From: Streptomyces sp. WMMC940
Lineage (GTDB): Bacteria; Actinomycetota; Actinomycetes; Streptomycetales; Streptomycetaceae
Reading direction: 5' to 3'
DNA length: 64,000 nt
Assembly (NCBI RefSeq): GCF_027460265.1
Contig: NZ_JAPZBC010000001.1
Span: forward strand, 7,428,001-7,492,000
The translations under genes and the position numbers were made by a program. Shown here one piece after another: positions 3,144-53,818 of this stretch (the stretch's first letter is position 1; each line of letters begins with the position of its first letter). The notes beneath the pieces were generated by a model, which worked only from the letters and a program-made list of their open reading frames with translations, did no database searches and was not told the origin of the DNA.

Positions 3144-3145
3144 GG

Positions 3146-13455: not shown

Positions 13456-13459
13456 CCGG

Positions 13460-16964: not shown

Positions 16965-17792
16965 ATGGCTGAGATGACCACTGCCTCGAAGTTGCCCACC
17001 ACCACGCGGCGTGTGCTGCCGGTCGGAGAGAACGGCTCGCTCTGGGCCGCCCGGCCGGCGTACGGGATCTTTGAGTTCCGCGGCAAGCAGCTGCGGATCG
17101 CGGTCGCCGACCCTTCGGAAGTGCTCTTTCCCACCGACTGCGGTCTGAGCCTCGTCGCGGCCCTCGACGCCGAGGACGGGCCAGATCTCGACGGAGTCAA
17201 CGCGCTCGACCTCGGGTGCGGATCCGGGCTCTACACGGTCGCGCTGCTCGCTGCCGGGGCCGCACATGTGACCGCCCTCGACATCAACGCGGCCTCGGCC
17301 GGCCAGACCGCGGCCAATGTCGAGCGCAACGGCCTGGACACCGCACGCCTCTCGTGTGTCACCGCCGATCTCGCTTCGTACGAGCCGACCGGGAAATTCG
17401 ATTTGATCGTCACCAATCCGCCGCATCTTCCCTACGACCCCAGCTACGCCGCCGACAACGGCCTGGAGACGGCCCTGGTCGCAGGAGACGACGGCCGGAC
17501 GCTGTACGACGCGGTCGTGGCACGTGTGGACGATCTGCTCGTGCCCGGCGGGCGGCTGGTCATGGCGCATTCCTCGCTGGCCGACGTACCGCGCACCATT
17601 GCGGAACTGGAACTCCGCGGCTACGAGTGGCGAACGCTCGAGGTGTGCGAGATGGACATTCCGCTGCTGGCGTACGCCGAACACAAGAAGACGATGCTGG
17701 ACCTTCTCGAACGCCTGAGGGACCTGGGAAGAGCTGATTTCGAAGGAGAGCGGTTCAACGTGCACGCCTTGGAGTTCCGACGCGCTGCCTGA
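16965..17792 (+). CDS. N-type class I SAM methyltransferase (NPPH motif), first operon gene
   Basis: A 275-residue methyltransferase. Motif I is ALDLGCGSGLYTVALLAAG, motif II is VTALDINAASAGQTAANVERN, and motif IV is FDLIVTNPPHLPY. The NPP[YFH] tetrapeptide is typical of enzymes that methylate amide, amine or exocyclic nitrogens (HemK/PrmC, RlmG, TrmN6 types). Here the last residue is His. GAAAGG at 16956-16961 is 3 bases before the ATG at 16965; an upstream ATG at 16938 has no ribosome binding site. It opens the biosynthetic operon, so it probably N-methylates an intermediate rather than ribosomes. That is inference from context. Confidence 0.83.
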   Translation: MAEMTTASKLPTTTRRVLPVGENGSLWAARPAYGIFEFRGKQLRIAVADPSEVLFPTDCGLSLVAALDAEDGPDLDGVNALDLGCGSGLYTVALLAAGAAHVTALDINAASAGQTAANVERNGLDTARLSCVTADLASYEPTGKFDLIVTNPPHLPYDPSYAADNGLETALVAGDDGRTLYDAVVARVDDLLVPGGRLVMAHSSLADVPRTIAELELRGYEWRTLEVCEMDIPLLAYAEHKKTMLDLLERLRDLGRADFEGERFNVHALEFRRAA

Positions 17793-17840
17793 AATCGCCG
17801 CACAAGCCGATCCACACCGGAAAACAACGAGGGGAACCGG

Positions 17841-18632
17841 ATGACCACTGAGCAGAGCGCGCGACCTGTCGCGGCAGCCGACGTGAACGAACTGCTGGGC
17901 CGCCATTTCGCGGAGCAGTTCACGGAGGATCGGATGACCGCGCTACGCACGCAGTTCGAGGCCGAGCACATCGTGCCGCTCCGCCGGCTGTGTCCACCGG
18001 AACTCTTCGGCGCCATCAAGGACGAGGCCTGTGTCATCATGGACCGTCATGGCGTCAGCCACGACCTCGTATTCGAGATAACCGACAACACCCCGCGCAG
18101 CATGACCACCGTCGGGCAGCCGGTCATCAAGGACGAGGGACCGCTGATCGACGCTTTCTACTTCGCCCCGGAAATTCTGCGACTTGTCGGCGATATCGTC
18201 GGTGAGCAGGTGCACACCTGCCCCTACGAGGGCGAGCACTACGTCATCAGCCGGCTCGGGAAGTCGGGTGACACCCACGGCTGGCACTGGGACGACTACA
18301 CCTACGGCATCATCCTCGTTCTCGAAGCACCTCACTACACGGAGGGTGGGTTCGTCCAGGCGGTGCCCAACACCTCGTGGGACAAGAAGAATCCGGATGT
18401 CTACGGCGCGCTGATCAGCAGCCAGGTCCGGTCCTACGCCCTCGAACCGGGCGACGCCTACGTGGTGAAGACGAACACCACGATGCACCGCGTGCACCCC
18501 ATCCGGGGCGAAGGTCGACGCACCATCGTCAACATGACGCTGGTCAGCACCGAGGACCTGACCAAGTCGCTGACCCACGAGACCAACGACGCCCTCTTCG
18601 GCGGTGTCAGGGACACCCGTCATGCGGGCTGA
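17841..18632 (+). CDS. 2-oxoglutarate/Fe(II)-dependent oxygenase
   Basis: A 263-residue double-stranded beta-helix oxygenase. The iron-binding facial triad is seen as HxD in GWHWDDYTYG (His149, Asp151) and a distal His in TMHRVHPI (216 or 219). The Arg in GEGRRTIVNM should bind 2-oxoglutarate. The Trp-rich box and the following ILVLEAPHYTEGGFVQ strand resemble amino-acid or free small-molecule hydroxylases of the PhyH/ArpA-like group. It follows the methyltransferase by 48 bases with a GAGGGG ribosome binding site. It probably hydroxylates or desaturates an amino acid or peptide precursor in this pathway. Confidence 0.85.
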   Translation: MTTEQSARPVAAADVNELLGRHFAEQFTEDRMTALRTQFEAEHIVPLRRLCPPELFGAIKDEACVIMDRHGVSHDLVFEITDNTPRSMTTVGQPVIKDEGPLIDAFYFAPEILRLVGDIVGEQVHTCPYEGEHYVISRLGKSGDTHGWHWDDYTYGIILVLEAPHYTEGGFVQAVPNTSWDKKNPDVYGALISSQVRSYALEPGDAYVVKTNTTMHRVHPIRGEGRRTIVNMTLVSTEDLTKSLTHETNDALFGGVRDTRHAG

Positions 18633-18657
18633 ACCGCCGCCGCCCGGCGGAGACACG

Positions 18658-19797
18658 ATGACACGGCCACGCGAGACGATGCGTCGACTGCCGCGCCCCG
18701 TCCAGCCCTTCCTGACGTGGGTGACGGGCGTCCCGCTGGCCGGGGACCGGTTGAGGGTCCTCTGGAGACCCACACTCGCGCTGATCGCCGGGGTGGTCCA
18801 GACCGCCGTCGGTATCGCCGTCGGAGTGTACGGACTCACCCGGCCCTGGTACCTCCTGCTGCCGTTGGTGCTGCTCTCGTGGCCCACCACGGCCGGCGGG
18901 ATGCGCAGGCTCGACGTGGTCGTCGTCCACCAGACACTGCACCGCATGTTCACCGCGTCCACCGCGGGGAACCGGGTGGTCAGCGAGCTCGTCACGACGC
19001 TGCTGTGGCGGCCCCCGTACGACGGCAACCGTCAGGAGCACCTCACCCACCACGCCTTCCCCTGCTCGCTCAAGGACGGCGACACGCTCTACCTGCGGAG
19101 CACCGGGGCCCGGCCCGGCATGACACGGCAGCAGTTCCGCCGCTACCTGCTGCGAGCGGTCCTCTCCCCGGCCCACCACTGGGGGTTCTTCTCCAGTCGG
19201 GTCAAGGCCAACTTCCTGACCAGGAAGCCGCTCTACCGGGCCGTCATGGCGTATGCCCACCTCGTGGGCACGGTCGGGTTCCTCGTGCTCACAGGCTGGT
19301 GGCTGCAGTGGCTGCTCTTCTGGTTCCTGCCCGTCACGTTCTTCTTCCAGAACCAGACACTCCTCTACACGCTCAGCGAGCACCGGTGGTGGCTGTACGA
19401 CAACGCCGAGCGCCTTACCAAGGCGCAGCGCGACCAGCTCACCTTCGGCAGGTTCTGCGGCAGACCCGCCCCGGACACCGCGGGCAAGGGGGCCCTCACC
19501 CGCTGGGCCGCCTGGACCGGCTGGTGGCTGCGCATGGTCCTGCTCTACGCGCCGTACCGGATGTGGATCCTCGTCGGCGACACCGTGCAGCACGATCTGC
19601 ACCACGTACGTCCCAAGGTCGACTGGGCCAACTCGTCGTGGATACGCAACGAGGACCTCGCCACCGGCAACGCCGACCGCTACTTCGAGGCGTGGGGCGG
19701 CCTGCTCACCCACGTCTACGTCGGCAACAGCGTCCGCGACTGGACCGCAGAGCCGTCCGCCCCGCTCGCCCCGGCCCGAGCGGAGGCGAGCCGGTGA
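18658..19797 (+). CDS. Membrane fatty acid desaturase/hydroxylase family enzyme
   Basis: A 379-residue integral membrane di-iron enzyme. Three histidine boxes are visible: HQTLH, HLTHH and, near the C-terminus, HDLHH followed by VRP. At least four hydrophobic segments lie around them (for example about residues 40-75 and 205-240). This is the fatty acid desaturase/beta-carotene hydroxylase fold, which inserts a double bond or hydroxyl at unactivated carbon. The start follows GGCGGAG at a spacing of 6; an upstream in-frame ATG (18622) overlaps the previous gene and is less likely. The stop overlaps the next start as GTGA. Such enzymes in peptide clusters often act on amino-acid side chains, so an acyl substrate should not be assumed. 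Confidence 0.83.
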   Translation: MTRPRETMRRLPRPVQPFLTWVTGVPLAGDRLRVLWRPTLALIAGVVQTAVGIAVGVYGLTRPWYLLLPLVLLSWPTTAGGMRRLDVVVVHQTLHRMFTASTAGNRVVSELVTTLLWRPPYDGNRQEHLTHHAFPCSLKDGDTLYLRSTGARPGMTRQQFRRYLLRAVLSPAHHWGFFSSRVKANFLTRKPLYRAVMAYAHLVGTVGFLVLTGWWLQWLLFWFLPVTFFFQNQTLLYTLSEHRWWLYDNAERLTKAQRDQLTFGRFCGRPAPDTAGKGALTRWAAWTGWWLRMVLLYAPYRMWILVGDTVQHDLHHVRPKVDWANSSWIRNEDLATGNADRYFEAWGGLLTHVYVGNSVRDWTAEPSAPLAPARAEASR

Positions 19798-21182
19798 CCC
19801 GCACGACCGACAACGAGTCCCGCACGACGGCCGCCGGGGCGACCGGCAGGGTCCTCGTGGTGGACAGCACCGGGCGCGGACACGGCATCTGCGAGATGTT
19901 CACCCGCACCAATCCGCACGTGGTCGTCCACTACGGTCCCGGCTGCGATGTCATCGACCACCCGCGCATCCTCCCGGCTCCCTCCGTCGACTTGACGGAC
20001 CCGCGCACCGCAGCCGAATTCCTGGCCGACCACCCGGTCGAGTTCGTCTTCGTGTCCAACATCGACGCCCTGTCGCAGGGGTACGTCGACTTCCTCCGGG
20101 CCGCAGGGCACCGCGTGATCGGACCCACGGCCGCAGCGGCCGAACTGGAGTCCAGCAAGGCCCGCGGCAAGGAGTTCTGCCGCGACCACGGCATTCCGGT
20201 CGCGGAGTTCGAGGTGTTCACCGACCCGGCGAAGGCCAAGGAGTACGTGACGGCGGTGCCGTACGCGTGCGTCGTCAAGACCGACGGCTTGACCCCTGAC
20301 GGAGACGGTTCCGTGGTCTGCGACGACGCCGCCGACGCGGTCCGCGCGATCGAACGCTTCGCCGAGCGGGCCGCGCGAACCGGTGAGGACCTGCGGCTGG
20401 TCGTCGAGGAGCGGCTGACAGGCCACGAGATATCGGTGTTCGGCCTGCTCGACGGCCAGTCCGCCATGCTGTTCCCGACCGCGATGGACTACAAGCGCAC
20501 CCTCGAGGACGACGCGGGGAAGAACTGCGACGGCATGGGCTCCATCGCCCCGCACCCCCAGGACAGCTCCGCGCTCCGGGAGCAACTGCGCTCCGTGCTC
20601 GTCGACCCGCTGGTGCGCGGTCTGAAGGCGGACGGCCTCGACTTCACCGGCTTCGTCTACATCGGCGCCATGCTGACGTCGCGCGGGCCGGTCGTCATCG
20701 AGATCAACGCCAGGTTCGGCGACTCCGAGGCCGAAGTGGTGCTCCCCGGAGTGCGGAGCGACTTCCTCCAGCTGTGCCGGGCAGTTCTCGCCCGCCGGCT
20801 GGGCCGGCACCGGCTCGACACCGACGGTCTCGCCCGCTGCTCCGTCGCGCTGGTGCAGGGCTGCCTCGACCCCGAGGACCCCGGCGCCCTCGTCGGCTGG
20901 CCCTTCGGCCCCTTCGCCACCGGTCAGGCGGTACTCGGCATGGACCGCGTCGACCCCGAGGAGGCCGTGGTGTTCTGCGCGAACGTGCGCCGCGACGGCT
21001 CCGGGACACCGCGCACCACGGGCGGCCGGGTGCTCCACGTCGTGGGTGCCGGCCACACACTGGAACAGGCACGCCGTCGGGCCTACGGGCAGATCGAGCG
21101 CATCGCATTCGCCGGCATGCGCTTCCGTACCGACATCGGGGCGGGGGTCGCGGCGCACGTCGCGACCCCGGCCGGGAAGTGA
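19794..21182 (+). CDS. PurD-like ATP-grasp ligase (GAR synthetase paralogue)
   Basis: A 462-residue protein with the full PurD layout. The N-terminal domain has RVLVVDSTGRGHGICEMF, then GPTAAAAELESSKARGKEFC leading into the ATP-grasp domain. The metal-binding part has FVYIGAMLT and IEINARFGDSEAEVVLP, and the C-terminal domain ends GGRVLHVVGAGHTLEQARR ... FRTDIG. The glycine-rich ATP loop is altered: genuine PurD reads KADGLAAGKGV, here it is KTDGLTPDGDGSVV. The MDYKRTLEDDAGKNCDGMGS segment replaces the usual DHKR..D.GPNTGGMG. No other purine genes are nearby. It is probably recruited to join an amine to an amino acid in the pathway. The start overlaps the previous stop as GTGA. Confidence 0.85.
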   Translation: MTRTTDNESRTTAAGATGRVLVVDSTGRGHGICEMFTRTNPHVVVHYGPGCDVIDHPRILPAPSVDLTDPRTAAEFLADHPVEFVFVSNIDALSQGYVDFLRAAGHRVIGPTAAAAELESSKARGKEFCRDHGIPVAEFEVFTDPAKAKEYVTAVPYACVVKTDGLTPDGDGSVVCDDAADAVRAIERFAERAARTGEDLRLVVEERLTGHEISVFGLLDGQSAMLFPTAMDYKRTLEDDAGKNCDGMGSIAPHPQDSSALREQLRSVLVDPLVRGLKADGLDFTGFVYIGAMLTSRGPVVIEINARFGDSEAEVVLPGVRSDFLQLCRAVLARRLGRHRLDTDGLARCSVALVQGCLDPEDPGALVGWPFGPFATGQAVLGMDRVDPEEAVVFCANVRRDGSGTPRTTGGRVLHVVGAGHTLEQARRRAYGQIERIAFAGMRFRTDIGAGVAAHVATPAGK

Positions 21183-21191
21183 GATGGGCCC

Positions 21192-22508
21192 ATGCCACGC
21201 AGAAGAGCGTTCGTGTTCTTCGAGTTGATGAACGCCATGCTGTACACCGCGCAAGCCGTTCAGCGGCGCGGCTTCGACATCGTCGCCCTCAACCACAACC
21301 CGCTGTGCTCCGCCGGGCCGTTCGCGGTGCCCGACGGGCTCGTCGACGAGACCGTCCCCATCGCCTCCTGGTCCGACGACGCGGCGGTCGGCGGGGTGCT
21401 CAAGGACCTCGCCCAGCGGTACGACGTCGTCGGCACTCACAGCATGTTCGAGCCGACCCTGCCCCACCAGGCCGCGCTCCGGGAGCTCGCCGGTCTGCCG
21501 ACGACGGACCCGGCCACCCTGTCGCGCATCCTCGACAAGTCACGGGTGCGCGCCGAACTGCACGGCGCGGGGCTCACAGCCCTGCGCTGCGTCCCCCTGG
21601 AGGAGGCGCTCGCCTGGGAGAGCTGGCAGTTCTCCGGACCGGCGGTCCTGAAGCCCGCCAACGGAACCGGCAGCGCCCTCTGCTTCGAGGTCGCCACCAT
21701 CGCCGAACTGCACCAGGCGGCGGCCGCGGCTCGTACGGTCGACGTCGTCAACCCACTGATGCGGGAGTACATCCACGCCCGCGGCGGCTTCCTCGTGGAG
21801 GAGAAGGCCGAGGGCGAGCTCCTGTCGGTCGAGTCGATGGTGCACTGCGGCGACGCCGGCTTCGTGACCCTGACCGGCCGGTACGTGCTGGCCGGTGATC
21901 CGGTGGTCGAGCAGGGCATGCAGACGCCGTACCACCATCCGCACCTGGACGCCGTCGTCGCCAGGTCCCGGGCGATCCACGAATGTCTGGGGTTCCACCA
22001 CGGCGGCACGCACCTGGAGTTCATGGTCGCCGACGACGGCACCGCCGAACTCGTCGACTTCAATCCGCGGCCCGGCGGCTTCGCGTCCCCGGTCTCCATC
22101 GGCGAGGCGTACGGGGTCGACTACGCCGAAGTGCTCGTCGACGTCGGCTGCGGCATCAGGCCGGATCTGGGCTTCACCCGGCGCCCGCCGCGCTACGCCG
22201 TGGAGATGGTCGTCCTGCCGCCGCCGGACGCCACCGAGTTCCGCTCGATCGAGTTCCCCCCGGGCACCCTCGTCGCCCGGGCCACCAAGAACCCGGGGGA
22301 CCGGCTCAGCGGCCGCTCCGACCAGCTCGACGCGGTCGGCATGTTCATCGTGACCGCCGACACCGCCTCGCAGGCCCACCGAGCCGGCCTGGAGGCCCGG
22401 CGGGAGGTCGTGGTCAACGGGGTCCGGCTGGGCGACGGCCCGGCCAACACGGTCGCCTTCTCGCAGTACATCGGCCAGGACCTGCCCGTGCCGGAGCGAG
22501 GAAGGTGA
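21192..22508 (+). CDS. ATP-grasp carboxylate-amine ligase
   Basis: A 438-residue member of the L-amino acid ligase group (BacD/carnosine synthase-like). After an N-terminal Rossmann-like domain (RAFVFFELMNAMLYTAQAV), the ATP-grasp core shows TLSRILDKSRVRAEL, the ATP lysine in AVLKPANGTGSALC, the adenine-binding FLVEEKAEGELLSVES strand, and the metal-binding HLEFMVADDG then VDFNPRPGG. The C-terminal 130 residues form the usual lid domain. These enzymes make acyl-phosphates and join them to amines, giving dipeptides. It starts 9 bases after the PurD-like gene and is translated in the same operon. Confidence 0.87.
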   Translation: MPRRRAFVFFELMNAMLYTAQAVQRRGFDIVALNHNPLCSAGPFAVPDGLVDETVPIASWSDDAAVGGVLKDLAQRYDVVGTHSMFEPTLPHQAALRELAGLPTTDPATLSRILDKSRVRAELHGAGLTALRCVPLEEALAWESWQFSGPAVLKPANGTGSALCFEVATIAELHQAAAAARTVDVVNPLMREYIHARGGFLVEEKAEGELLSVESMVHCGDAGFVTLTGRYVLAGDPVVEQGMQTPYHHPHLDAVVARSRAIHECLGFHHGGTHLEFMVADDGTAELVDFNPRPGGFASPVSIGEAYGVDYAEVLVDVGCGIRPDLGFTRRPPRYAVEMVVLPPPDATEFRSIEFPPGTLVARATKNPGDRLSGRSDQLDAVGMFIVTADTASQAHRAGLEARREVVVNGVRLGDGPANTVAFSQYIGQDLPVPERGR

Positions 22509-22513
22509 CGGCC

Positions 22514-23875
22514 ATGACCGTATCGGAGACGGAGGGAAACGTGATCAAGGGTCGAGGCCAGGCCGAGGTGTTCGCGGACCGGGAGTCGGCGGTGCGCTCG
22601 TACTCGCGCGCGTTCCCCACGACCTTCGCGACCGCGCACCGCGAGTTCCTGGTGAGCGCCGACGGCACCCGCTACATCGACTTCCTCGCCGGTGCGGGAA
22701 CGCTGAACTACGGGCACAACCCGGATTTCGCCAAGCGGGCGCTGATCGACTACATCGAACGCGACGGGCTGACACACGGCCTCGACCTGGCGACCACCGC
22801 CAAGCAGAGGTTCCTGGAGCTCTTCGAGGAGCATGTGCTCCTGCCCCGTGGCCTGGACCACAAGGTGCAGTTCTGCAGCCCGTCCGGAACCAACGCGGTG
22901 GAGGCGGCGCTGAAGATAGCCCGCCTGGCGACCGGACGCAGCAACGTCGTGGCCTTCGGCGGCGGATTCCACGGGGTGAGCACAGGCGCGCTGGCCGCGG
23001 GCGGGTCCGTCTTCTACAAGCAGGGCCTGCACCCGATTCTGCCCCGGACCACGCACGTACCGTATCCCGACTCCCCGATGGGGCCCTTCGACAGCCTGGA
23101 CCTGCTCGACCGGCTCGTGGGCGACACGAGTTCCGGTGTCGAGAAACCGGCCGCGGTGCTGCTGGAGACCGTCCAGTGCGAGGGCGGCGTCTACGTCGCC
23201 CCCGATCACTTCCTGGCCGGCCTGCGCCGCTGGTGCGACACCCACAAGGTGCTGCTGATCGTCGACGACATCCAGGTGGGCTGCGGACGCACCGGATCGT
23301 TCTTCTCCTTCGAGCAGGCGGGAGTCCGACCGGACCTGATCGCCCTGTCGAAGTCGATCAGCGGTTTCGGCCTCCCGATGGCCCTGCTGCTGATCAGTCC
23401 CGAATACGACGTGTGGAAACCCGGTCAGCACAACGGGACGTTCCGCGGCAACCAGCTGGCGTTCGTCACGGCCGCGGAGACCGTGCGCACCTACTGGTCG
23501 GACGGTGCCGATCCGGCCTTCGGCGCCGAAGTGCGGCGCAAGGCAGGGCTCGTGGAGGACGTCCTGCAGCGGGAGGTGGCGGCCAGATTCGCCGCACGGG
23601 TACGGGGACGAGGCCTCATCCGGGGCATCGACCTGAGCGCCGCCGGCATCTCCGGGACGAAGGTGTCCCGTCGCTGCTTCGAGCGCGGCCTGATCGTGGA
23701 GACCTGCGGCCGCGACGGCGAGGTCATCAAGCTCCTCCCCCCGCTGACCGCAGAGGACGGCAGCCTGATGCAGGGCCTCGAAATCCTGGTCGAGGCCCTC
23801 TACGACGAGGCGCAGGGCGGTGACCGGCAAGCGACGCCCGTCGCCCCGACCAGGCCGGCCGCGGTGACATCATGA
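22514..23875 (+). CDS. ectB: Diaminobutyrate-2-oxoglutarate aminotransferase (EctB family)
   Basis: A 453-residue class III PLP aminotransferase closely resembling EctB. Diagnostic segments are VRSYSRAFP, YIDFLAGAGTLNYGHN, ERDGLTHGLDLAT, FCSPSGTNAVEAALKIAR, ETVQCEGGVYVA, LLIVDDIQVGCGRTG and the PLP lysine (about Lys280) in LSKSISGFGLP. EctB converts L-aspartate-4-semialdehyde plus glutamate into L-2,4-diaminobutyrate. In ectoine clusters it is flanked by ectA and ectC, but neither is here. Instead it sits between ATP-grasp ligases, so diaminobutyrate is probably a building block of the product. A GGAAGG site precedes the ATG, and the stop overlaps the next gene as ATGA. Confidence 0.9.
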   Translation: MTVSETEGNVIKGRGQAEVFADRESAVRSYSRAFPTTFATAHREFLVSADGTRYIDFLAGAGTLNYGHNPDFAKRALIDYIERDGLTHGLDLATTAKQRFLELFEEHVLLPRGLDHKVQFCSPSGTNAVEAALKIARLATGRSNVVAFGGGFHGVSTGALAAGGSVFYKQGLHPILPRTTHVPYPDSPMGPFDSLDLLDRLVGDTSSGVEKPAAVLLETVQCEGGVYVAPDHFLAGLRRWCDTHKVLLIVDDIQVGCGRTGSFFSFEQAGVRPDLIALSKSISGFGLPMALLLISPEYDVWKPGQHNGTFRGNQLAFVTAAETVRTYWSDGADPAFGAEVRRKAGLVEDVLQREVAARFAARVRGRGLIRGIDLSAAGISGTKVSRRCFERGLIVETCGRDGEVIKLLPPLTAEDGSLMQGLEILVEALYDEAQGGDRQATPVAPTRPAAVTS

Positions 23876-25131
23876 CGAGCGAAGGAACTTCCGAAGTGGA
23901 AAAGCCCGACACCATCCTGATCATCGGCGGACGGCTGGAGGCCATCCAGAAGGCCAAGGAACTCGGCCTGCGAGTCGTCTTCCTCCAGCACAAGGAGCGG
24001 CTGCTGCCCGGTCAGGCGGAAGCGGTGGACGTGCTGCTCCTGGTCGACTACCTGGACTGGAACGTCACCCGGCCGATCGTCCGCGCCGCACACGAGGCGT
24101 ACGGCTTCACCGCGGTGATGACCCTCGTGGAGCAGGCGACCGAACTGGCCGGGCGCATCAACGACATGCTGGGGCTCGGCGGCACCTCGTACGAAGTGGC
24201 CAGGCGCTTCCACGACAAGCTGCGGATGCGCGAGTGGTTGCACCGCACCGGGTTCGAGTCGGTGGGCTGTGCCGAGGTCAAGTCGGCGGAGGAGATCCGC
24301 AGGTTCGGCGAGCAACACGGCTTCCCCGTGGTCGTCAAGCCGATGGACGGCACCGCCAGCCGCGGCATCGCCGTGGTCCGCGGCCCGGAGGAGACCGAAG
24401 GGGCCTGGGCGGAGCTGACCGGACTGCGAGGCCGCGGCGACCTGCCCATGGCCACCTTCTACCCGGTGGACCGCTTCATCGCCGAGGAGTACATCGACGG
24501 CGTCGAGTACAGCGTGGAGAGCTTCTCGTTCGACGGCCACCACATCGTCGTCTCCATCACCGACAAGTTCCACGACGGCTGCGTCGAGATGGGGCACGCC
24601 CTGCCGGCGATCCTCGAGGACGAGAAGGAGAACACGATCGTTCGGCACGTGACCGGCTTCCTGACGGCCATGGGCCTCAAGGACGGCGTCGGGCACACCG
24701 AGGTCAAGCTCTCCGCCAAGGGCCCCCGGATCATCGAGGGCCACGACCGGGTCGCAGGTGACCGGTTGCTCGACTTCATGGCGGTCACCCACGGGTTCGA
24801 CATGGAGAAGTACGCATCCGGATGGCCGTTCCGGCGGCTGCCCGCGCTCACCGAGCGCCCCGTCCCGACGCTGGGGGCCGCCACCAAGTGGGTGAACGGA
24901 AGGCCCGGGATCGTCGAGGGGGTCGAAGGAGTCGAAGAACTCCGCTCCGAGGCAGGGGTGTTCGGCGTCGATGTCCATGTCCGTCCCGGCGAGGAGATCA
25001 CGGCGATGACCGACAACTACGGGCGCCACGTCCAGGTCCTGGTGACGGCCGAGACCACGGCCGCCGCGGTCGAACGCATCGACGCCCTGATCGACCGCGT
25101 ACGGGTCGTCACCCGTCCCGCATCGTCCTGA
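23872..25131 (+). CDS. ATP-grasp ligase
   Basis: A 419-residue ATP-grasp enzyme. The N-terminal domain begins TILIIGGRLEAIQKAKELG, a nucleotide-fold start typical of carbamoyl-phosphate-synthase-like ATP-grasp proteins. The core has YEVARRFHDKLRMREWLH, the ATP lysine in PVVVKPMDGTASRGI, the strand FIAEEYIDGVEYSVES and the metal ligands in GHTEVKLSAKGPRIIEGHDR, where the usual ExN is replaced by EGH. A small C-terminal domain follows (about residues 300-419). It overlaps the aminotransferase gene by 4 bases (ATGA). It probably forms one amide bond of the product. The partner substrates cannot be read from the sequence. Confidence 0.86.
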   Translation: MTSEGTSEVEKPDTILIIGGRLEAIQKAKELGLRVVFLQHKERLLPGQAEAVDVLLLVDYLDWNVTRPIVRAAHEAYGFTAVMTLVEQATELAGRINDMLGLGGTSYEVARRFHDKLRMREWLHRTGFESVGCAEVKSAEEIRRFGEQHGFPVVVKPMDGTASRGIAVVRGPEETEGAWAELTGLRGRGDLPMATFYPVDRFIAEEYIDGVEYSVESFSFDGHHIVVSITDKFHDGCVEMGHALPAILEDEKENTIVRHVTGFLTAMGLKDGVGHTEVKLSAKGPRIIEGHDRVAGDRLLDFMAVTHGFDMEKYASGWPFRRLPALTERPVPTLGAATKWVNGRPGIVEGVEGVEELRSEAGVFGVDVHVRPGEEITAMTDNYGRHVQVLVTAETTAAAVERIDALIDRVRVVTRPASS

Positions 25132-25173
25132 CCCTTCCCGCCCCGCGAGCGACACGAGAGAGAGCCGGGACAC

Positions 25174-26478
25174 GTGGCAACCACCATCGCCCCCGAGTCG
25201 ATATGGCAGAGATTCGGCGTACCACGACTGAAGGGGAACGGCAGGTTCGTCTCCGCGAGCCTCATCGACAGCCTCGGCACCGGGCTGATCATGGCGTTCA
25301 CACTGGTCTACTTCACCAGAACCACCGAGGTGTCCGTCACCGCGGTCGGTGCCGCGATGACCCTCGCGCGGCTCCTGGCCCTGCCCACATCGGTGATCGT
25401 GGGGCCGCTGATCGACCGGTTCACCGCACGCCGGACAGCCGCCTGGGGCAACCTCGTGTCGGTCGTCGGGTACCTCGGCTTCCTCGTGACCGACTCGGTC
25501 TGGCAGATCGTCGTGGTCGTCCTGCTCGTCCAGATCGGCCACACGACGTACTGGACGTCGAGCAGCGGGCTGGTCGTGCTGGCCTCGCCGGAGGACCGGC
25601 GCATCGCCTGGTTCGGCTTCATGACGGCTCTGCGCAACACGGCGATGGGCGTCGGCGGCGCACTCGCCGCGTTCGCGTTCGCTCTGGGCGAGGGCGCCGC
25701 GCTGCACGCCATCGTCATCGGCAACGCCGCCAGCTACGTCCTGGCCTCGGTTCTGCTACTGGCATGGAGGCCGCCGGAGCACGCGGCGGCGGTGCCGGAG
25801 GACACCGGGAGCCCGGACACCGACCCGGAACCGCCCACGCGGAACGCCGGGCAGCAGTCGGGGGCGGGTTACGCGGCGGTGCTGAAGGACGCCTCCTACG
25901 CCCTGCTGATCGGCATCAACGCCACGCTGGTCTTCGGACAGATGCTGATCAAAATCCTGCTGGCCATCTACATCGTCGACGTGCTCGGACTGCCGGCCTG
26001 GACGGCGGGAGCCCTGATCGTGGTCAACGCGGTACAGGTGTCCCTCACCCAGACACTGGTGGCCAAGCGGACGTCTCGAGCGAGGATGAGCCGGGTCGTC
26101 ATGCTGGGGTCGGTCCTCAACGCGGCGTCCTTCGGCATGTTCACGGTGATGTACGCGACGCCCGACGTCGTGACCTACGTCGGGCTGTTCCTCGCGATGG
26201 TCGTCTTCACGCTCGGCGAGGTCGTCGCCTTCCCCGCCATGGAGAACCTGAGCGTCACGATGGCCCCCAGTCACATCCGTGGCCGCTATCTGGCCACCTA
26301 CCAGTTGTCCTGGACCGTCGGCGAGATCGCCGCGCCAGGTCTGCTCACCTTCCTGCTGGCCCGCGGTGACGTCCTGCCGATGCTCTTCCTGCTCGGGCTG
26401 AGCCTGGTGGCGGTTCCGCTGCTGCTGGCCCTGGAACGTAGGGCACCCACCAAGACGAGCATGGGAGTAAGCGCGTGA
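25174..26478 (+). CDS. MFS transporter, probable exporter of the product
   Basis: A 434-residue major facilitator with about twelve hydrophobic segments in two halves joined by a charged loop (about residues 200-230, rich in Pro, Asp and Glu). The first helix region GTGLIMAFTLVYFTRTTEVS and the loop IDRFTARRTAAWGN correspond to the MFS signature between helices 2 and 3 (GxxxDRxGRR). It lies between two ATP-grasp genes and its TGA overlaps the next start as GTGA, so it belongs to the operon. Drug-efflux-type MFS proteins in such clusters usually export the metabolite and give self-protection. The start is GTG, 42 bases after the previous stop. Confidence 0.87.
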   Translation: MATTIAPESIWQRFGVPRLKGNGRFVSASLIDSLGTGLIMAFTLVYFTRTTEVSVTAVGAAMTLARLLALPTSVIVGPLIDRFTARRTAAWGNLVSVVGYLGFLVTDSVWQIVVVVLLVQIGHTTYWTSSSGLVVLASPEDRRIAWFGFMTALRNTAMGVGGALAAFAFALGEGAALHAIVIGNAASYVLASVLLLAWRPPEHAAAVPEDTGSPDTDPEPPTRNAGQQSGAGYAAVLKDASYALLIGINATLVFGQMLIKILLAIYIVDVLGLPAWTAGALIVVNAVQVSLTQTLVAKRTSRARMSRVVMLGSVLNAASFGMFTVMYATPDVVTYVGLFLAMVVFTLGEVVAFPAMENLSVTMAPSHIRGRYLATYQLSWTVGEIAAPGLLTFLLARGDVLPMLFLLGLSLVAVPLLLALERRAPTKTSMGVSA

Positions 26479-27749
26479 AGACGGTCGTAGTGATATCGAC
26501 GCGTGGGTTCGGCGTGTTCCGCCACGATCTGCTGGTGGAACCGGACCAGGTCCGGTTCGTGGGGATCTTCTCCGAGCAGGACAGCGTCAACGTCTCGGAT
26601 ACCGAGGGCTCCTACTTCCACCGCATCCACGTGGTGCCGTGCGGCCTCGACGACCCCTCGTACACCGAGTCGTCGATCGTGGACCCCGCCGCGACCCGGG
26701 CGATCGTGCACGAACTGGCCGGGCAGAGCGGCACCGGCGAACTCACGCTGCACTGCTTCGACGAGCGCAACCTGCTGCTGACCGCCGAACTGCGTGAGGA
26801 GCTGGGCCTTCCCGGGCCCACCTACGAGCAGTTGCTGCCCTATCGGGACAAGTGCCTGATGAAGGAGAGGCTGGCCGGCACCGGACTCCGCGTGCCCCGC
26901 TTCGGACGGTTCGACGAGCAGGGCTTCCGGGACGACCCGGCGGCCTGCCTGGACCGCATCACCGCGGACGTGGGCATGCCCTTCGTCCTCAAGCCGGTCG
27001 ACGCGGCCTCGGCAGACGGCGTCTACAAGATCTTCTCCGCCGACGAGTTCTTCGCCCTGCCGCACGACCTGGGCCGCAGCTACGAGTACGAGGAGCACAT
27101 CGACGGCACCATGTACAGCGTCAACCTGGTCGTCAAGGACGGGCGCACCGTGTTCGGAGGGGTGACCGAGTACTTGGTCAACTCGACCGAGGTGCAGCGC
27201 GGCCGGGTGAACGCCGACATCAACCTGATCGACACGGACCCCCGCGTCCCCCGGATGATCGCTTTCGCGGAGACGGTACTCGAAGCCCTCGGCAAGCTGG
27301 ACGGCGCCAGTCACCTGGAGCTGTTCCACACCGCGGAGGACGAGCTGGTCTTCCTGGAGGTCGGGGCCCGCTTCAAAGGCCTCGCGGGTCTTGCCGCCAT
27401 GCAGCAGAACTACCAGGTCGCCCTGCTCAACCTCGCCTTCGAGATCGAGGCGGGCCTCAAGAGCCACCCCTGGGACCAGGAGCAGATGTACTGCTTCGAC
27501 GCCGTGATGCCCAAGCGGCCCGGCATCGTCTCTGAACTGGTGGAGCCCGAGGTGGAGAGCGAAGTCGAGATCAAGTGGAAGGTGACGGTGGGGGAGGAGA
27601 TCAAGCAGGGCGCCTCACTCATCGACAACGGCGGCACCTTCCTGGTGCGCAACCACGACTACGAGACGCTCTACCGCGACTTCGAACGGCTCGCCACGTA
27701 CCAGCCGATCCGCTACGAGGACCAGCGTCGCGGGGGCCCTGGAAAGTGA
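26475..27749 (+). CDS. ATP-grasp ligase
   Basis: A 424-residue ATP-grasp protein and the fourth in the operon. Core features are YEQLLPYRDKCLMKERLAG, the ATP lysine in PFVLKPVDAASADGVYK, the strand YEYEEHIDGTMYSVN and the metal-binding pair HLELFHTAEDELVFLEVGARF. The last segment has ExGAR where many relatives have ExNxR, so the metal site may be unusual. The N-terminal domain (KTVVVISTRGFGVF) is a short Rossmann-like domain. The GTG start is coupled to the transporter (GTGA), and the stop is coupled to the next gene in the same way. It is probably a second or third amide-forming step. Confidence 0.86.
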   Translation: MKTVVVISTRGFGVFRHDLLVEPDQVRFVGIFSEQDSVNVSDTEGSYFHRIHVVPCGLDDPSYTESSIVDPAATRAIVHELAGQSGTGELTLHCFDERNLLLTAELREELGLPGPTYEQLLPYRDKCLMKERLAGTGLRVPRFGRFDEQGFRDDPAACLDRITADVGMPFVLKPVDAASADGVYKIFSADEFFALPHDLGRSYEYEEHIDGTMYSVNLVVKDGRTVFGGVTEYLVNSTEVQRGRVNADINLIDTDPRVPRMIAFAETVLEALGKLDGASHLELFHTAEDELVFLEVGARFKGLAGLAAMQQNYQVALLNLAFEIEAGLKSHPWDQEQMYCFDAVMPKRPGIVSELVEPEVESEVEIKWKVTVGEEIKQGASLIDNGGTFLVRNHDYETLYRDFERLATYQPIRYEDQRRGGPGK

Positions 27750-28186
27750 TACTCCGCAGACAGGGTGACGACGTCGACGTCGAGTCGGTCCGTTCCGCAG
27801 TAAGACACATCATCGAATCGAGACGATTCGACGGCTGGCTGATCGAGATGCCGGATCATGTACTGGTGCAGGTCGCGGCCCCACTCGAAATGCTCGGCTT
27901 CCAGCACTACATGACGCCGCCGCAGGACCGTCTGCTGGTCAGGGCGGCCCGGGTGGTGTGGGACGCTGTCGCAGGCCTCCTGGACGACTGCCCGGCCGAC
28001 CTGGCCGAGGGATTCGCCTCGCTCGGCGCGGCCCTCAGCGCCGCCCCCGCCGTGGCACGCGGCCAGGAGTGGGCCCCATCTCAGCCGCTGCAGCGAAGGA
28101 CAGGAGTTTCCCCGTGCACTACTCAGGGCTTGAACTCGACCGGGCCGGCGCCCGGCGGGCCGACGCCGCCTGGATCGCCGGGCTGA
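27746..28186 (+). CDS. Small hypothetical protein of the biosynthetic operon
   Basis: A 146-residue frame starting at GTG within the GTGA overlap of the preceding ligase. Residues 1-90 are well-behaved coding sequence (VILRRQGDDVDVESVRSAVR, WLIEMPDHVLVQVAAPLEM, DAVAGLLDDCPADLAEGFAS) and look like a compact alpha/beta domain. The last 24 codons overlap the NUDIX gene out of frame and are Pro/Gly-rich, so the true functional part may end near 28110. I do not recognise the family. Its exact coupling to both neighbours makes it a likely pathway component, for example a small carrier-like or accessory protein. Confidence 0.6.
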   Translation: MILRRQGDDVDVESVRSAVRHIIESRRFDGWLIEMPDHVLVQVAAPLEMLGFQHYMTPPQDRLLVRAARVVWDAVAGLLDDCPADLAEGFASLGAALSAAPAVARGQEWAPSQPLQRRTGVSPCTTQGLNSTGPAPGGPTPPGSPG

Positions 28187-29061
28187 CCGCCCGGCCCGGG
28201 ACCCGCGTCGTCCCCCTCTGGCGCGACCAGTGCCTGGTCCAGGACGGTTCACCGGTCGAACGCACCGGAAGGATGGCGCGGGCCCTGCTCGAGGCCGCTC
28301 CTGAACCCGTGTTCCTGGGACTGGACGGCGACCAGGCCGTATTCGCGGCCGATCTGTCGGAGTTGGCGGAGGACGAGGCGTCCGCCCTGGGCGCCGCCGA
28401 GGGCGTTCGGGACGTACGTGCCATGGTGTCCACCCTCACCCTCGCGGAGGCCGGCCTGCTGGCGTATGCCCGGGGCATCCTGCACTGGCACCGCAACCAA
28501 CGGTTCTGCGGTGCGTGCGGCGGGGTCGCCGCCAGCCGCGACGGCGGCCATCTGCGGGTCTGCCGCGGCTGCGGGAAAATGCTGTTCCCCCGGATCGAGC
28601 CGGCCGTGATCGTCCTGGTGGAGTGCGCACAGGAACCCCGGCGCTGCCTGCTGGGCCGACACGCCGGTGCCGGACCGGACAACTTCAGCACCCTGGCCGG
28701 CTTCGTCGAGGTCGGCGAGAGCCTGGAGGACGCCGTCCGGCGCGAGGTCCTCGAGGAGGCCGGTGTGGTCGTCAAGGACGTCGTGTACCAGGGCTCCCAG
28801 GCGTGGCCGTTTCCCGCCGGGCTCATGGTGGCCTTCCGAGCCGAGGCCGTCGGCGACGAAACCGACGTCGACGGAGCGGAACTGGTCGAGGCGCGCTGGT
28901 TCACCACGGCCGAGCTGCGTGACCACATCGACGCCGGAAACGGCTGCCGGCCCGACTCCATCGACAAGTTCCTCATCGAGAGCTGGATCGCGGAAAGAGC
29001 GGATGACCACACAGCACAGACAACACGAGCAGCGGCACGGAGAGCATTGGATGGACGGTGA
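28114..29061 (+). CDS. nudC: NUDIX hydrolase, NAD+ diphosphatase (NudC) type
   Basis: A 315-residue NudC-like enzyme. A zinc ribbon (CGACGG ... CRGCGK) precedes the NUDIX domain. The NUDIX box runs GFVEVGESLEDAVRREVLEE plus AGV, matching Gx5Ex7REUxEExGU with all catalytic acids. The NudC-specific SQPWPFPxS motif appears as SQAWPFPAG, so the Pro after Gln and the final Ser are changed. NudC splits NAD(H) to NMN(H) and AMP and removes NAD caps from RNA. The start is GTG with AGGAG at spacing 7. Why an NAD-hydrolysing enzyme belongs to a peptide operon is unclear: it may trim a nucleotide-bearing intermediate. Altered motif residues support a different substrate. Confidence 0.85.
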   Translation: MHYSGLELDRAGARRADAAWIAGLTARPGTRVVPLWRDQCLVQDGSPVERTGRMARALLEAAPEPVFLGLDGDQAVFAADLSELAEDEASALGAAEGVRDVRAMVSTLTLAEAGLLAYARGILHWHRNQRFCGACGGVAASRDGGHLRVCRGCGKMLFPRIEPAVIVLVECAQEPRRCLLGRHAGAGPDNFSTLAGFVEVGESLEDAVRREVLEEAGVVVKDVVYQGSQAWPFPAGLMVAFRAEAVGDETDVDGAELVEARWFTTAELRDHIDAGNGCRPDSIDKFLIESWIAERADDHTAQTTRAAARRALDGR

Positions 29062-29485
29062 ACCACCTCCGGGCAAAGGCGAGTTCTCCCGCGTCCTGGC
29101 AACACCCCCCGCACCGCCGCCGGCGGCGCTCGCCTACTTCCGGCAGGCGCGGCTGGCCTGCGAGACGGACCCCTTCGACGTGTACCACGATCTGGCGTCC
29201 CGGGCGGGCGGATTCGTGCTGGTGGACGCCCGCACGACGGACGTCTACGACGAGGAGTGCCTGCCCGGTGCGCTGAGCATGCCCCACGAGCGGATGACCG
29301 GCGAAGTCCTCCGCATGCTCGATCCCGCGCCGGTCTACGTCACCTACGGATGGGGTCCCGCCTGCAACGCGGGCACCAGAGCCGCCGCCCACCTCGCGGC
29401 GGCGGGCTTCCGGGTCAAGGAGATGATCGGCGGCCTCGAGTACTGGAAGCGGCAGAACTATCCCACGACGACGAAGAGGCGTTAG
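29051..29485 (+). CDS. Rhodanese-like domain protein
   Basis: A 144-residue single-domain rhodanese. It has FVLVDARTTDVYDEECLPGA, the usual strand and substrate-entry segment, then YVTYGWGPACNAGTRAAAHL, with the active-site loop C-N-A-G-T-R around Cys105, and the closing KEMIGGLEYWKR. Rhodaneses carry a persulfide on this cysteine and pass sulfur to acceptors. The ATG at 29051 overlaps the end of the NUDIX gene by 11 bases and follows GGAG; an in-frame ATG at 29003 with GGAAAG is an alternative. If part of the pathway, it could bring sulfur to the product. Detoxification is the other option. Confidence 0.83.
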   Translation: MDGEPPPGKGEFSRVLATPPAPPPAALAYFRQARLACETDPFDVYHDLASRAGGFVLVDARTTDVYDEECLPGALSMPHERMTGEVLRMLDPAPVYVTYGWGPACNAGTRAAAHLAAAGFRVKEMIGGLEYWKRQNYPTTTKRR

Positions 29486-29487
29486 CG

Positions 29488-30603
29488 GTGTCACACGAGA
29501 TCAAGCTCGTCATCGACGAGGTCAACGAGATACGAACGCAGCTCGCCAAGGACGCCGATGTCCGCAGCCCGGAGTTCCTGGCGGACCTGCTGCGGCGGCT
29601 GGAGTCCTCGGAGCACCTGCGCCGTCAGCCCGTCGTGCGGGCGTTCATGGACGACATACGGCAACAGGGGCCGCAGCCGCGCCTGACGCGCACCAAGGCG
29701 CACATCAACACCGAACGCGACAACCATCTGTTCTCGCTGTTCAACGCCTCGTACTTCCCCCGGCTCTCGCTGGACTACCTCACCTATGAGACGCTGCCGA
29801 CCGATCCGCACCTGGCCCAGCGGTACGGCAGCAACACCATGCCGGTGAACATCACCGCATGCTCGGACGGGTTCAACTCCAGGGTGGTCGTTGCGCTCTT
29901 CCCGGAGAACCACATCGACGGCCGACAGGACCCCGACGACCTCATCTTCTATTTCATCAACAAGTTCGTCGCCCGCCACAACCGCGTCACCCGCAAGATG
30001 ATCGACGAGGTCATGGCGCCCGGCAGCTTCCCGCTCATCCAGGGCGCCGACGACGACCGTGTGCAGGCCGCGTCGTCCTGGTGGGTGCGGCTGCACGAGT
30101 TCCACCACAGGCAGGGCGACATGCCGATCCCGGACTACCTGGACGCCAAGAAGCTCAAGCCGCTGGCCGGACTCGAGGAACTCCGCGTCGACGTCTCCGC
30201 CATGCTGGTGTGCCTGAACGACCACGATCTCCCCGGCGACCAGGCGCGTGCCGCGTACGAGTACATCCTCGCCGAACGGCTTCTGCGCTACGCCGTCGAA
30301 GGGATCCCCCGGCCCAACTACGACGCGGTCGCCTCGCAGGTCCTGTTCAACTACCTCTCCCAGAACGACGGTATCGAACTGAACGGCGACCGCATCCACC
30401 TCCGGCCGGAGCTGCCCCGGGTGCTGGCCGGCTTCCTCGGCGAGATCCAGGCCATCGAGCGGCGCATCCGCACGGAGGACGTGTCCGACGTCCGTGCCGG
30501 ACTGCTGGAGTTCACGAACCGCTACACCGACTACGACGAAGCGGCAGGCGACTACCGCCACATCGCGTTCTTCGCCGAGGTGAAGCAGCGCCTCGGCGTC
30601 TGA
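29488..30603 (+). CDS. DUF6421-like protein with HExxH motif, last operon gene
   Basis: A 371-residue protein. Its pattern matches what I know of the streptomycete DUF6421 family: NTMPVNITACSDGFNSRVV and a FPENHI strand, then a His-rich motif, then GLEELRVDVSAML. In this copy the His-rich motif is LHEFHHRQGDMP, a perfect HExxH zinc-peptidase signature, while DUF6421 members that I recall have HDRTHSHGD at this place. The downstream EELRxD could give the third metal ligand. A metal-dependent hydrolase or peptidase is therefore plausible, but no activity is established. The GTG start is 3 bases after the rhodanese stop. It closes the operon. Confidence 0.7.
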   Translation: MSHEIKLVIDEVNEIRTQLAKDADVRSPEFLADLLRRLESSEHLRRQPVVRAFMDDIRQQGPQPRLTRTKAHINTERDNHLFSLFNASYFPRLSLDYLTYETLPTDPHLAQRYGSNTMPVNITACSDGFNSRVVVALFPENHIDGRQDPDDLIFYFINKFVARHNRVTRKMIDEVMAPGSFPLIQGADDDRVQAASSWWVRLHEFHHRQGDMPIPDYLDAKKLKPLAGLEELRVDVSAMLVCLNDHDLPGDQARAAYEYILAERLLRYAVEGIPRPNYDAVASQVLFNYLSQNDGIELNGDRIHLRPELPRVLAGFLGEIQAIERRIRTEDVSDVRAGLLEFTNRYTDYDEAAGDYRHIAFFAEVKQRLGV

Positions 30604-30879
30604 CCGGCGGACCCCCGGTGCCCAGCGGGACCGAAGCCCGGGCCGGCGACTGCACACGTGCGGGAACCGGGCCGGAGTCGGTGTCAGTACGTGCGGGGTG
30701 ACGTCGTGGGTCCGGTCCCTCGGGGTGCGCTGATGGCGGCGGCGGGGGAGTGCCCGGGAACGGGCACCGCCGGTCTCCCACATGCCCGCCTGGTCCGTGC
30801 TCTGGTCGACGAGCCATGACGGGGACGGTGATCGGTGTCGCGAAGGCCGGCCGAGATGATGACGTTGGGACCGTACACC

Positions 30880-43424: not shown

Positions 43425-43551
43425 GTGGGGCCCTTTCTGTGGGAACGTCATGAACCTATTGGACTCTGGCCGAGACGAAGCGTTGCCCGCCGTCGGCGTG
43501 ATTCGGGCAGTCCGGATTGCACCCGCATTCCGTGACTCTCTGTGGTGGGAG

Positions 43552-53400: not shown

Positions 53401-53489
53401 CCGGTCACAGACCAAATGCCCGGCGGTCTCGACGGCCACCGGGCATCCAACCCTGCCCAAACAGACCCTGACCTGGACCTATTTACGCG

Positions 53490-53700: not shown

Positions 53701-53818
53701 CCGGAATCGTGGCCTTGACCTCGCGTCTACGTAATGGTGGAGTCGGGTATTGGAACTCTCTGAATGCCTCCCGTCCTCGGGGCTCCGCGTGGGTCCCCGG
53801 CGTGCTGCGGACCTGTAG

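What the first reader, a model, noticed from the sequence alone, without database searches (positions are those of the whole stretch)
16965..30603. Unassigned 13-gene biosynthetic operon with four ATP-grasp enzymes and an EctB-type aminotransferase
Thirteen genes on one strand, most with 4-base overlaps, combine a diaminobutyrate aminotransferase, four ATP-grasp enzymes, an Fe(II)/2-oxoglutarate oxygenase, a membrane desaturase, an N-type methyltransferase, an MFS exporter, a NUDIX enzyme, a rhodanese and a DUF6421-like protein. No NRPS or PKS is present. The set suggests a non-NRPS peptide containing 2,4-diaminobutyrate, heavily tailored. I recognise no known pathway with this exact set.
Basis: partly seen in the sequence, partly recalled or inferred. 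Interest (0 to 1): 0.9.

Follow-up and report, generated by a model that had tools for sequence, protein, structure and literature searches.

The report
Uncharacterised ATP-grasp peptide biosynthesis operon
A Streptomyces chromosome carries a 13-gene operon, found again in related bacteria, that probably makes a small, oxidised and possibly sulfur-containing peptide without the usual peptide-making megaenzymes; the enzyme combination was not found in the papers searched, and the product is unknown.

Summary
The 13 same-strand genes at 16965-30603 are real and operon-like. Their order is kept 13 of 13 in three other loci; twelve loci from twelve genomes share a core: g2 (BesD-clade Fe/2OG enzyme), g3 (membrane diiron oxygenase), g4 (PurD-like ATP-grasp), g5 and g9 (ATP-grasp), g12 (rhodanese) and an MFS exporter. 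All genes compared are under purifying selection. Additions: (1) DUF6421 is the PolE family of Fe/pterin-dependent L-Ile desaturases; one operon copy's PolE is solved (9J3G, 371/371 identical). (2) g2 has HxD, not halogenase HxG, in 120 of 120 listed homologues and keeps BesD's lysine contacts: probably a diamino-acid hydroxylase. (3) 'PurD' g4 has six PurD motifs altered in 8 of 8 aligned orthologues: probably a repurposed ligase. (4) In 5 of 5 reduced copies g9 and g12 are one fused ATP-grasp-rhodanese protein, so g9 may pass sulfur to an activated carboxylate. (5) EctB is not invariant (10 of 12). Best reading: ATP-grasp assembly of a small exported peptide from oxidised amino acids. Product, step order and target are unknown. 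New variant of a known kind; the fusion is the boldest lead.

The parts
16965..17792 (+). g1, PrmC/MTS-like methyltransferase (NPPH motif), probably N-methylation
   Evidence: Pfam MTS 49 bits, PrmC-type hits below cut-off (run from the alternative start 16938); present in 5 of 12 loci, the same five as g13
17841..18632 (+). g2, Fe(II)/2OG enzyme of the BesD/HalD clade with HxD triad: predicted free diamino-acid hydroxylase
   Evidence: HalD 319 bits; HWD in 120 of 120 listed homologues, own included; BesD Lys-contact R, E, H, D kept in 119 of 119; 12 of 12 loci
18622..19797 (+). g3, membrane diiron FA-desaturase-superfamily oxygenase, weakly GntB-like
   Evidence: FA_desaturase 60.8 bits, GntB 33.5 bits vs cut-off 380; three His boxes in the 8 of 8 orthologues examined; 12 of 12 loci
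19794..21182 (+). g4, PurD-derived ATP-grasp ligase with altered PurD motifs
   Evidence: TIGR00877 318 bits vs cut-off 288; six motifs changed in the 8 of 8 orthologues aligned; a separate PurD elsewhere in the genome; 12 of 12 loci
21192..22508 (+). g5, ATP-grasp ligase
   Evidence: ATP-grasp_4 45.8 bits; 12 of 12 loci
22514..23875 (+). g6, EctB-like L-2,4-diaminobutyrate aminotransferase
   Evidence: NF006733 569 bits vs 438; TIGR02407 536 vs 552; 10 of 12 loci; a second EctB-type gene (51%) in the host genome
23872..25131 (+). g7, ATP-grasp ligase with LAL_C2 domain
   Evidence: ATP-grasp_4 65.7 and LAL_C2 60.3 bits; nearest PDB sequence 3vot L-amino acid ligase 99.9 bits; 7 of 12 loci, the same seven as NudC and the g8-type MFS
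25174..26478 (+). g8, MFS exporter
   Evidence: MFS_1 116 bits; an MFS gene in 12 of 12 loci, of two types (L038's by eye)
26475..27749 (+). g9, ATP-grasp enzyme; in 5 other loci fused to the rhodanese domain
   Evidence: ATP-grasp_4 32.6 bits; 12 of 12 loci; fusion with g12 in L006, L038, L096, L097, L098; also in a separate small cluster in L040/L041 without a rhodanese
27746..28186 (+). g10, small helical protein of unknown function (88-117 aa in relatives)
   Evidence: no Pfam/NCBIfam; 31 homologues in all, itself included; five helices predicted, mean pLDDT 70, no PDB match at E<=0.001; 6 of 12 loci
28114..29061 (+). g11, NudC-type NAD(H) diphosphatase, cluster paralogue
   Evidence: NF001299 195 bits vs 158; second NudC (41%) elsewhere in the genome; 7 of 12 loci
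29003..29485 (+). g12, rhodanese-domain protein with active-site-like Cys (start 29003 or 29051); separate gene here, fused to g9 in 5 other loci
   Evidence: PF00581 35 bits; CN(A/G)GT in the 8 of 8 orthologues examined; 12 of 12 loci; fusion
29488..30603 (+). g13, PolE family (DUF6421) Fe/pterin-dependent amino-acid desaturase
   Evidence: PDB 9j3g SmPolE 658 bits, SnPolE 560 bits; HEFHH...E metal motif kept in 5 of 5 orthologues; 5 of 12 loci
30750..31823 (+). ISL3-family transposase bordering the operon; not part of it
   Evidence: NF033550 202 bits vs 180; no match in the nine other loci searched with it

Best explanation
The operon encodes an NRPS-independent pathway to a small exported peptide. 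Step 1 (inferred): EctB-type g6 makes L-2,4-diaminobutyrate from aspartate semialdehyde, or the cell borrows another EctB. Step 2 (inferred from residues): BesD-clade g2 hydroxylates a free diamino acid (DAB, ornithine or lysine) and membrane diiron g3, next to g2 in all 12 loci, oxidises the same or a second residue. Step 3 (inferred from the PolE paper): PolE-type g13 desaturates L-Ile, or a close relative, in the full version. Step 4 (inferred): ATP-grasp enzymes g4 (a repurposed PurD) and g5, plus g7 in the full version, activate carboxylates as acyl phosphates and join residues one amide at a time; g9 does the same, or, given its fusion to rhodanese g12 in 5 loci, hands a persulfide sulfur to its acyl phosphate (about 0.3). 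Step 5 (inferred): g1 N-methylates and the MFS protein exports. NudC (g11), which travels with g7, has no assigned step. Shown: gene content, conserved order, selection, motif states, the fusion. Not shown: any reaction, the product, its target.
For: Families and motifs. Order kept 13 of 13 in three loci, 12 of 13 in L005. Six genes plus an MFS in 12 of 12 loci. Purifying selection on every gene in the pairs compared. Extra copies beside PurD, EctB and NudC elsewhere in the genome. g9-g12 in one frame without stop or N in 5 of 5 reduced loci, both domains above Pfam's cut-off in each. PolE is Fe-, O2- and BH4-dependent and specific for L-Ile (PMC12614342, sections read); L004's g13 equals the PDB 9J3G protein, 371/371. 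BesD contacts R77, H137, D143, E123 to L-Lys (PMC13244439, passage) are all conserved in g2 and 119 homologues. Both loci without g6 sit in genomes with an EctB-type gene elsewhere; for G145 it lies in an ectABCD-like operon, read by eye.
Against: No product, transcript or assay. A second EctB (48-52%) is also present in 8 of the 9 genomes examined that do carry g6 (all but G046), so the in-trans argument is weak. L095 has DegT and OCD-like genes and no EctB, which could mean another building block. ATP-grasp enzymes also make non-peptide bonds, cyclise or phosphorylate. g9 reads EVGAR or EVAAR where ATP-grasps usually have E-x-N-x-R (recalled), so its metal site may differ. g9 relatives (52-53%) in L040/L041 have no rhodanese in the 20 kb read, so g9 does not always need one. 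BesD's further contacts D239 and W241 lie outside the alignment I saw.
Confidence: 0.6

Rival explanations
1. The pathway makes a modified single amino acid or cyclic amino-acid antimetabolite: the ATP-grasp enzymes protect, cyclise or carry the residue (as gamma-glutamyl or lactam-forming steps) instead of building a chain.
For: Core rich in free-amino-acid oxidases (g2, g3; PolE in the full version). The closest oxidase relatives act on free amino acids: BesD (PMC13244439, passage), PolE (PMC12614342). BesA and DcsG precedents are recalled, not tested.
Against: Three ATP-grasps in every copy and four in seven of twelve is more than one protecting or cyclising step needs; g7 has a LAL_C2 dipeptide-ligase domain. 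The count shrinks if g9 is a sulfur-transfer enzyme.
Confidence: 0.22
2. A nucleotide- or NAD-linked product: PurD-like g4 still uses a phosphoribosylamine-type amine and NudC supplies or trims a nucleotide, giving a glycosylamine or nucleoside peptide.
For: g4 exceeds the NCBIfam PurD cut-off (318 vs 288); a dedicated NudC paralogue lies in 7 of 12 loci.
Against: Six PurD motifs are altered in 8 of 8 g4 proteins aligned but kept, with small variants, in the 3 PurDs aligned; NudC is absent from the 5 reduced loci; no glycosyl- or phosphoribosyl-transferase family was found among the 13 proteins.
Confidence: 0.12
3. NudC is self-protection, hydrolysing a toxic NAD adduct of the product, as mycobacterial NudC does with isoniazid-NAD. 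This can be true together with any of the other readings.
For: NudC hydrolyses drug-NAD adducts (title and start of abstract of PMC3283747 and PMC12772312 in the listing); the cluster copy is an extra one and travels with g7 and the g8-type exporter in 7 of 7 loci.
Against: No warhead known; 5 of 12 loci lack NudC; NudC may as well act on a biosynthetic nucleotide.
Confidence: 0.12

Closest known systems
PolE (DUF6421), polyoxin pathway, Streptomyces cacaoi
   Same: g13 is in the family; L004's g13 is the solved SmPolE (9J3G)
   Different: No PolF-like DUF6202 match among the 13 proteins; substrate not tested
BesD L-lysine 4-chlorinase / HalB / HalD
   Same: Same Pfam family (PF23169); Lys-contact residues that align are kept
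   Different: HxD instead of HxG, so hydroxylase-type; far below the BesD equivalog cut-off (176 vs 450)
PurD, phosphoribosylamine-glycine ligase
   Same: All three GARS domains; above the NCBIfam cut-off
   Different: Six conserved motifs altered in the 8 orthologues aligned; the host has another PurD elsewhere
EctB (ectoine pathway)
   Same: About 50% identical to the host's other EctB; EctB makes L-DAB in ectoine synthesis (recalled)
   Different: Just below the EctB equivalog cut-off (536 vs 552); no ectA or ectC beside it
ATP-grasp L-amino acid ligases (bacilysin BacD, dapdiamide DdaF, BL00235)
   Same: g7 matches the BL00235 (3vot) and BacD structures; acyl-phosphate ligation expected
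   Different: Far below BacD/DdaF equivalog cut-offs; partner enzymes differ
Rhodanese-coupled sulfur transfer (ThiI, MoeZ; recalled)
   Same: A rhodanese domain joined to an enzyme that activates a substrate with ATP
   Different: There the activating domain is PP-loop or ThiF/MoeB-type; here it is ATP-grasp; no activity shown
Guanitoxin GntB
   Same: Same superfamily of membrane diiron oxygenases; GntB acts on an amino acid
   Different: 33.5 bits vs cut-off 380; no guanitoxin family above cut-off in the operon

Membership tests
PolE / DUF6421 Fe-pterin oxidase | Pfam DUF6421 match and HE/DxxH-X(21-23)-E motif | tested here: met
   PF19985 48.3 bits vs 25; HEFHH then E after 22 residues; 658 bits to 9j3g
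PolE / DUF6421 Fe-pterin oxidase | L-Ile 3,4-desaturation with BH4 | not testable with these tools
   SnPolE residues mutated in the PDB set (F140, Y157, Y280) are conserved in g13, read off the alignment by hand
BesD-type halogenase | HxG/A facial triad leaving a halide site | tested here: not met
   HWD in g2 and in 120 of 120 listed homologues, own included, of 212 hits
BesD clade, free diamino-acid substrate | R77, E123, H137, D143 (BesD) conserved | tested here: met
   R86, E132, H146, D152 in g2 and 119 of 119 homologues; contacts from PMC13244439; D239 and W241 not compared
PurD (GAR synthetase) | Equivalog score | tested here: met
   318 vs 288 bits
PurD (GAR synthetase) | Conserved motifs GGREHA, GPExPL, GSK, GKG loop, GPNTGGMG, GDPE | tested here: not met
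   Altered in the 8 of 8 g4 proteins aligned (of 12 loci); conserved forms stand in the host PurD, 2yw2 and 2ip4, with small variants such as GGAREHA and GPMTGGMG
EctB | TIGR02407 equivalog cut-off | tested here: inconclusive
   536.1 vs 552.2, but above the subfamily model NF006733 (569 vs 438)
NudC | Equivalog score, Nudix box, SQPWPFP motif | tested here: met
   195 vs 158 bits; Nudix box kept; the motif reads SQAWPFP in five and SQGWPFP in one of 6 orthologues
Rhodanese sulfurtransferase | Domain score and active-site Cys | tested here: met
   PF00581 above cut-off in g12 and in 5 of 5 fusions; CN(A/G)GT in the 8 of 8 examined; catalysis not testable here
Known biosynthetic pathway in print | Same gene set described | tested here: inconclusive
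   No paper found in the searches (open-licence PMC only); MIBiG and antiSMASH-DB not available

The most novel reading that the evidence does not exclude
g9 and g12 form a new kind of sulfur-inserting enzyme: an ATP-grasp domain makes an acyl phosphate and the rhodanese domain, fused to it in 5 loci and encoded separately in the others, delivers a persulfide sulfur, giving a thiocarboxylate or thioamide. The pathway, with a PurD turned into an amide ligase, would then make a thio-peptide antimetabolite against amino-acid-handling enzymes; the S. bathyalis-type copy even ends in a dedicated second alanine racemase overlapping the rhodanese gene.
Probability: 0.2. Interest if true: 0.8.

Novelty: new variant of a known kind. 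Interest (0 to 1): 0.58.

Why it matters
If right, it is a recurrent family of peptide pathways that cluster finders keyed on NRPS/PKS genes may miss, with three oxygenase types acting on amino acids (Fe/2OG, membrane diiron, Fe/pterin), a repurposed PurD and an ATP-grasp-rhodanese pair whose chemistry can be tested directly. It also shows that two automatic names mislead here: 'HalD/BesD family halogenase' for an HxD hydroxylase-type clade, and 'phosphoribosylamine-glycine ligase' for g4. The 9J3G structure gives a ready entry for testing.

Tried and rejected
Halogenation by g2: rejected on HxD. Plasmid-borne spread: 14 plasmid records match g9, all below 60% identity and none covering 80% of it. 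g2 search over the phylum: only the window's own genome among 396. g10 function from structure: moderate model, no PDB match at E<=0.001. g9 structure: mean pLDDT 51, so no fold search was made. The first alanine racemase search with the L099 protein found only itself; the family model found a second Alr in G1002, so one search missed it. L040/L041 share g9 but none of g2-g6 and were not counted among the twelve loci; L007 (30% over part of g9) was not used. In the pattern check the g5 pattern matched 3 of 8, the EctB Lys pattern 4 of 7 and the g7 pattern 0 of 6; I did not follow up whether this is pattern strictness. BesD residue names searched in two papers under other numbering and not found. 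Open frames g5-g2 in L006 (708 aa) and g12-g13 in L005 (527 aa) were seen but have possible internal starts; I do not claim them as fusions. The script stopped with an error before its alignment; one search repeated that part. Literature searches. Because of the fusion I put a sulfur-transfer step into the mechanism and the novel case and raised interest from 0.52 to 0.58.
Full report
OBSERVATION. Thirteen + strand genes run from 16965 to 30603. Of 12 junctions 4 are exact 4-nt overlaps, 3 longer overlaps and 5 gaps of at most 48 nt. The window is C1:7428001-7492000 of a 7.63 Mb contig, so the operon lies about 170 kb from a contig end. The genus is taken to be Streptomyces because G041, 'same genus', has the coordinates of L004, Streptomyces sp. 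ms191. An ISL3 transposase (30750-31823) follows directly.

CONSERVATION. A named-genome scan with g9 found L003 (Streptomyces sp. NK15101), L004 (S. sp. ms191), L005 (Streptomycetaceae bacterium MP113-05), L006 (Wenjunlia tyrosinilytica) and a weak hit, L007, not used. In 392 genomes of the genus, 60 have some g9 match at E<=1e-20, of which 8 genomes (own included) have one at 50% identity or more; g2 at E<=1e-80 occurs in 6 of the 392 and in 7 of 394 genomes of the family sample, samples that share genomes. Reading neighbourhoods gives twelve loci from twelve genomes: the window, L003, L004, L042 with 13 of 13 genes in the same order (L004's g7 is cut by 100 N); L005 with 12 of 13 (no g6); L006, L038, L096, L097, L098 with MFS-g5-g2-g3-g4-g6-g9-g12; L039 and L095/L099 mixed. 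Counts: g2, g3, g4, g5, g9, g12 and an MFS in 12 of 12 (L038's MFS typed by eye); g6 10; g7 and g11 7, the same seven, which also hold the g8-type MFS; g10 6; g1 and g13 5, the same five. Every gene is under purifying selection in the four pairs compared (dN/dS 0.13-0.47), also in L005, which lacks g6.

ENZYMES. g2: Pfam HalD 319 bits, but below NCBI's BesD equivalog (176 vs 450). The triad is HWD, not HWG, in all 120 listed homologues, own included (212 hits in all, 120 listed). According to a computational paper (PMC13244439, passages) BesD binds lysine through E123, D143 and D239 (amino group) and R77, H137, W241 (carboxylate); the four that align are kept in g2 and 119 of 119 homologues. 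So I predict a hydroxylase of a free diamino acid. g3: the three His boxes of the desaturase superfamily are kept in the 8 of 8 orthologues examined; only a weak link to GntB. g4: above the PurD cut-off, but GGREHA, GPEAPL, GSK, the GKG loop, GPNTGGMG and GDPE are altered in the 8 of 8 orthologues aligned and not in the three PurDs aligned; another PurD lies elsewhere in the host. g6: EctB-like; the host has a second EctB (51%). The genomes of L005 (G145) and L095 (G1002), without g6 in the cluster, each have one EctB at 50-53%; G145's lies in an ectABCD-like operon, read by eye. This is weak evidence, since 8 of 9 genomes that carry g6 have a second EctB too. g11: of six genomes examined, five carry the cluster NudC plus a second one at 41-43%; G303 has only the second. 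g13: PolE family; in PMC12614342 (abstract, passages, sections 16 and 17) PolE desaturates L-Ile with Fe, O2 and BH4, and many DUF6421 enzymes are said to colocalise with amino-acid-modifying enzymes. PDB 9J3G (SmPolE) is identical over 371 of 371 residues to the g13 of L004, so one member of this operon family has a solved structure; I found no paper on it in the library. g10: 31 homologues, itself included; of 30 contig lengths compared with 26 from the g2 list, 9 recur, which suggests but does not prove restriction to this cluster family.

FUSION. In 5 of 5 reduced loci g9 and g12 are one frame of 547-554 codons with no stop and no N, and Pfam finds ATP-grasp and rhodanese domains above cut-off in each. 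In the window, L003, L004, L005, L042 and L099 they are separate (L039's g12 lies on the other strand). So the two probably work together. A rhodanese carries sulfur as a persulfide and an ATP-grasp enzyme makes an acyl phosphate (established for the families, recalled), so a thiocarboxylate or thioamide is a natural guess. Against: g9 relatives in L040/L041 have no rhodanese in the 20 kb read.

VARIANTS AS CLUES. L095/L099 (contig length as for Streptomyces bathyalis protein P0139, an inference) has no EctB but a DegT aminotransferase and an OCD-family protein, and after g12 an alanine racemase (289 bits, over the cut-off; a second Alr lies elsewhere). L039 has an asparagine-synthetase-A-like class II aaRS paralogue (429 bits vs 368) and an FMN-type enzyme. 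L040/L041 pair g9 with another AsnA-like protein (below cut-off) and a tRNA-editing domain. These point to amino-acid metabolism as the theme, possibly with self-protection.

MECHANISM. Best reading (0.6): amino acids are made and oxidised free, then joined by ATP-grasp ligases, methylated and exported, with g9-g12 as a possible sulfur step. Rivals: a single modified or cyclised amino acid (0.22); a nucleotide-linked product (0.12); NudC as protection against NAD adducts (0.12, not exclusive of the others).

NOVELTY. ATP-grasp peptide pathways are known; this combination was not found in open-licence papers, and MIBiG could not be searched. I rate it a new variant of a known kind. The repurposed PurD, the ATP-grasp-rhodanese fusion and the three oxygenase types are the surprising parts; without a product, interest stays a little above one half.

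Noticed in passing
window 60413-61678 (+): Microbial transglutaminase gene (PF09017, 777 bits).
   Followed up: no
window 10282-15625 (+): Two adjacent AfsK-like Ser/Thr kinases fused to periplasmic ligand-binding domains (Peripla_BP_6), upstream of the operon.
   Followed up: no
window 238-4201 (-): 939-aa AMP-binding protein next to a KAS III-like gene.
   Followed up: no
window 41505-43631 (-): HSP90-family protein.
   Followed up: no
window 52172-58241: IS110-type transposase and a phage integrase within 6 kb; with the ISL3 gene this suggests a mobile chromosome arm.
   Followed up: no
L003:14149-14706, L004:14194-14748, L042:15127-15606: A GPP34-family gene directly follows the operon in the three complete relatives; it gives no match in the window, where an ISL3 transposase stands.
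   Followed up: partly
L040, L041: Separate small cluster: YbaK-type editing domain (fused to the next gene in L040), AsnA-like class II aaRS paralogue, MFS, g9-type ATP-grasp and an aminotransferase-like gene, the last by eye.
   Followed up: partly
window 26475-27749 and 23872-25131: g9 has EVGAR or EVAAR in 10 of 10 sequences where ATP-grasps usually have E-x-N-x-R (recalled); the pattern tried for g7 matched 0 of 6.
   Followed up: no
window 27746-28186: g10 is 146 aa here but 88-117 aa in the 30 other homologues; the extra C-terminus overlaps the start of g11.
   Followed up: no
L005:12401-13984; L006:3915-6041: g12-g13 (527 aa) in L005 and g5-g2 (708 aa) in L006 are open in one frame; internal starts are possible. 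A 512-aa MP113-05 protein, P0009, matches all of g13, so an annotator may have read the L005 pair as one gene.
   Followed up: partly
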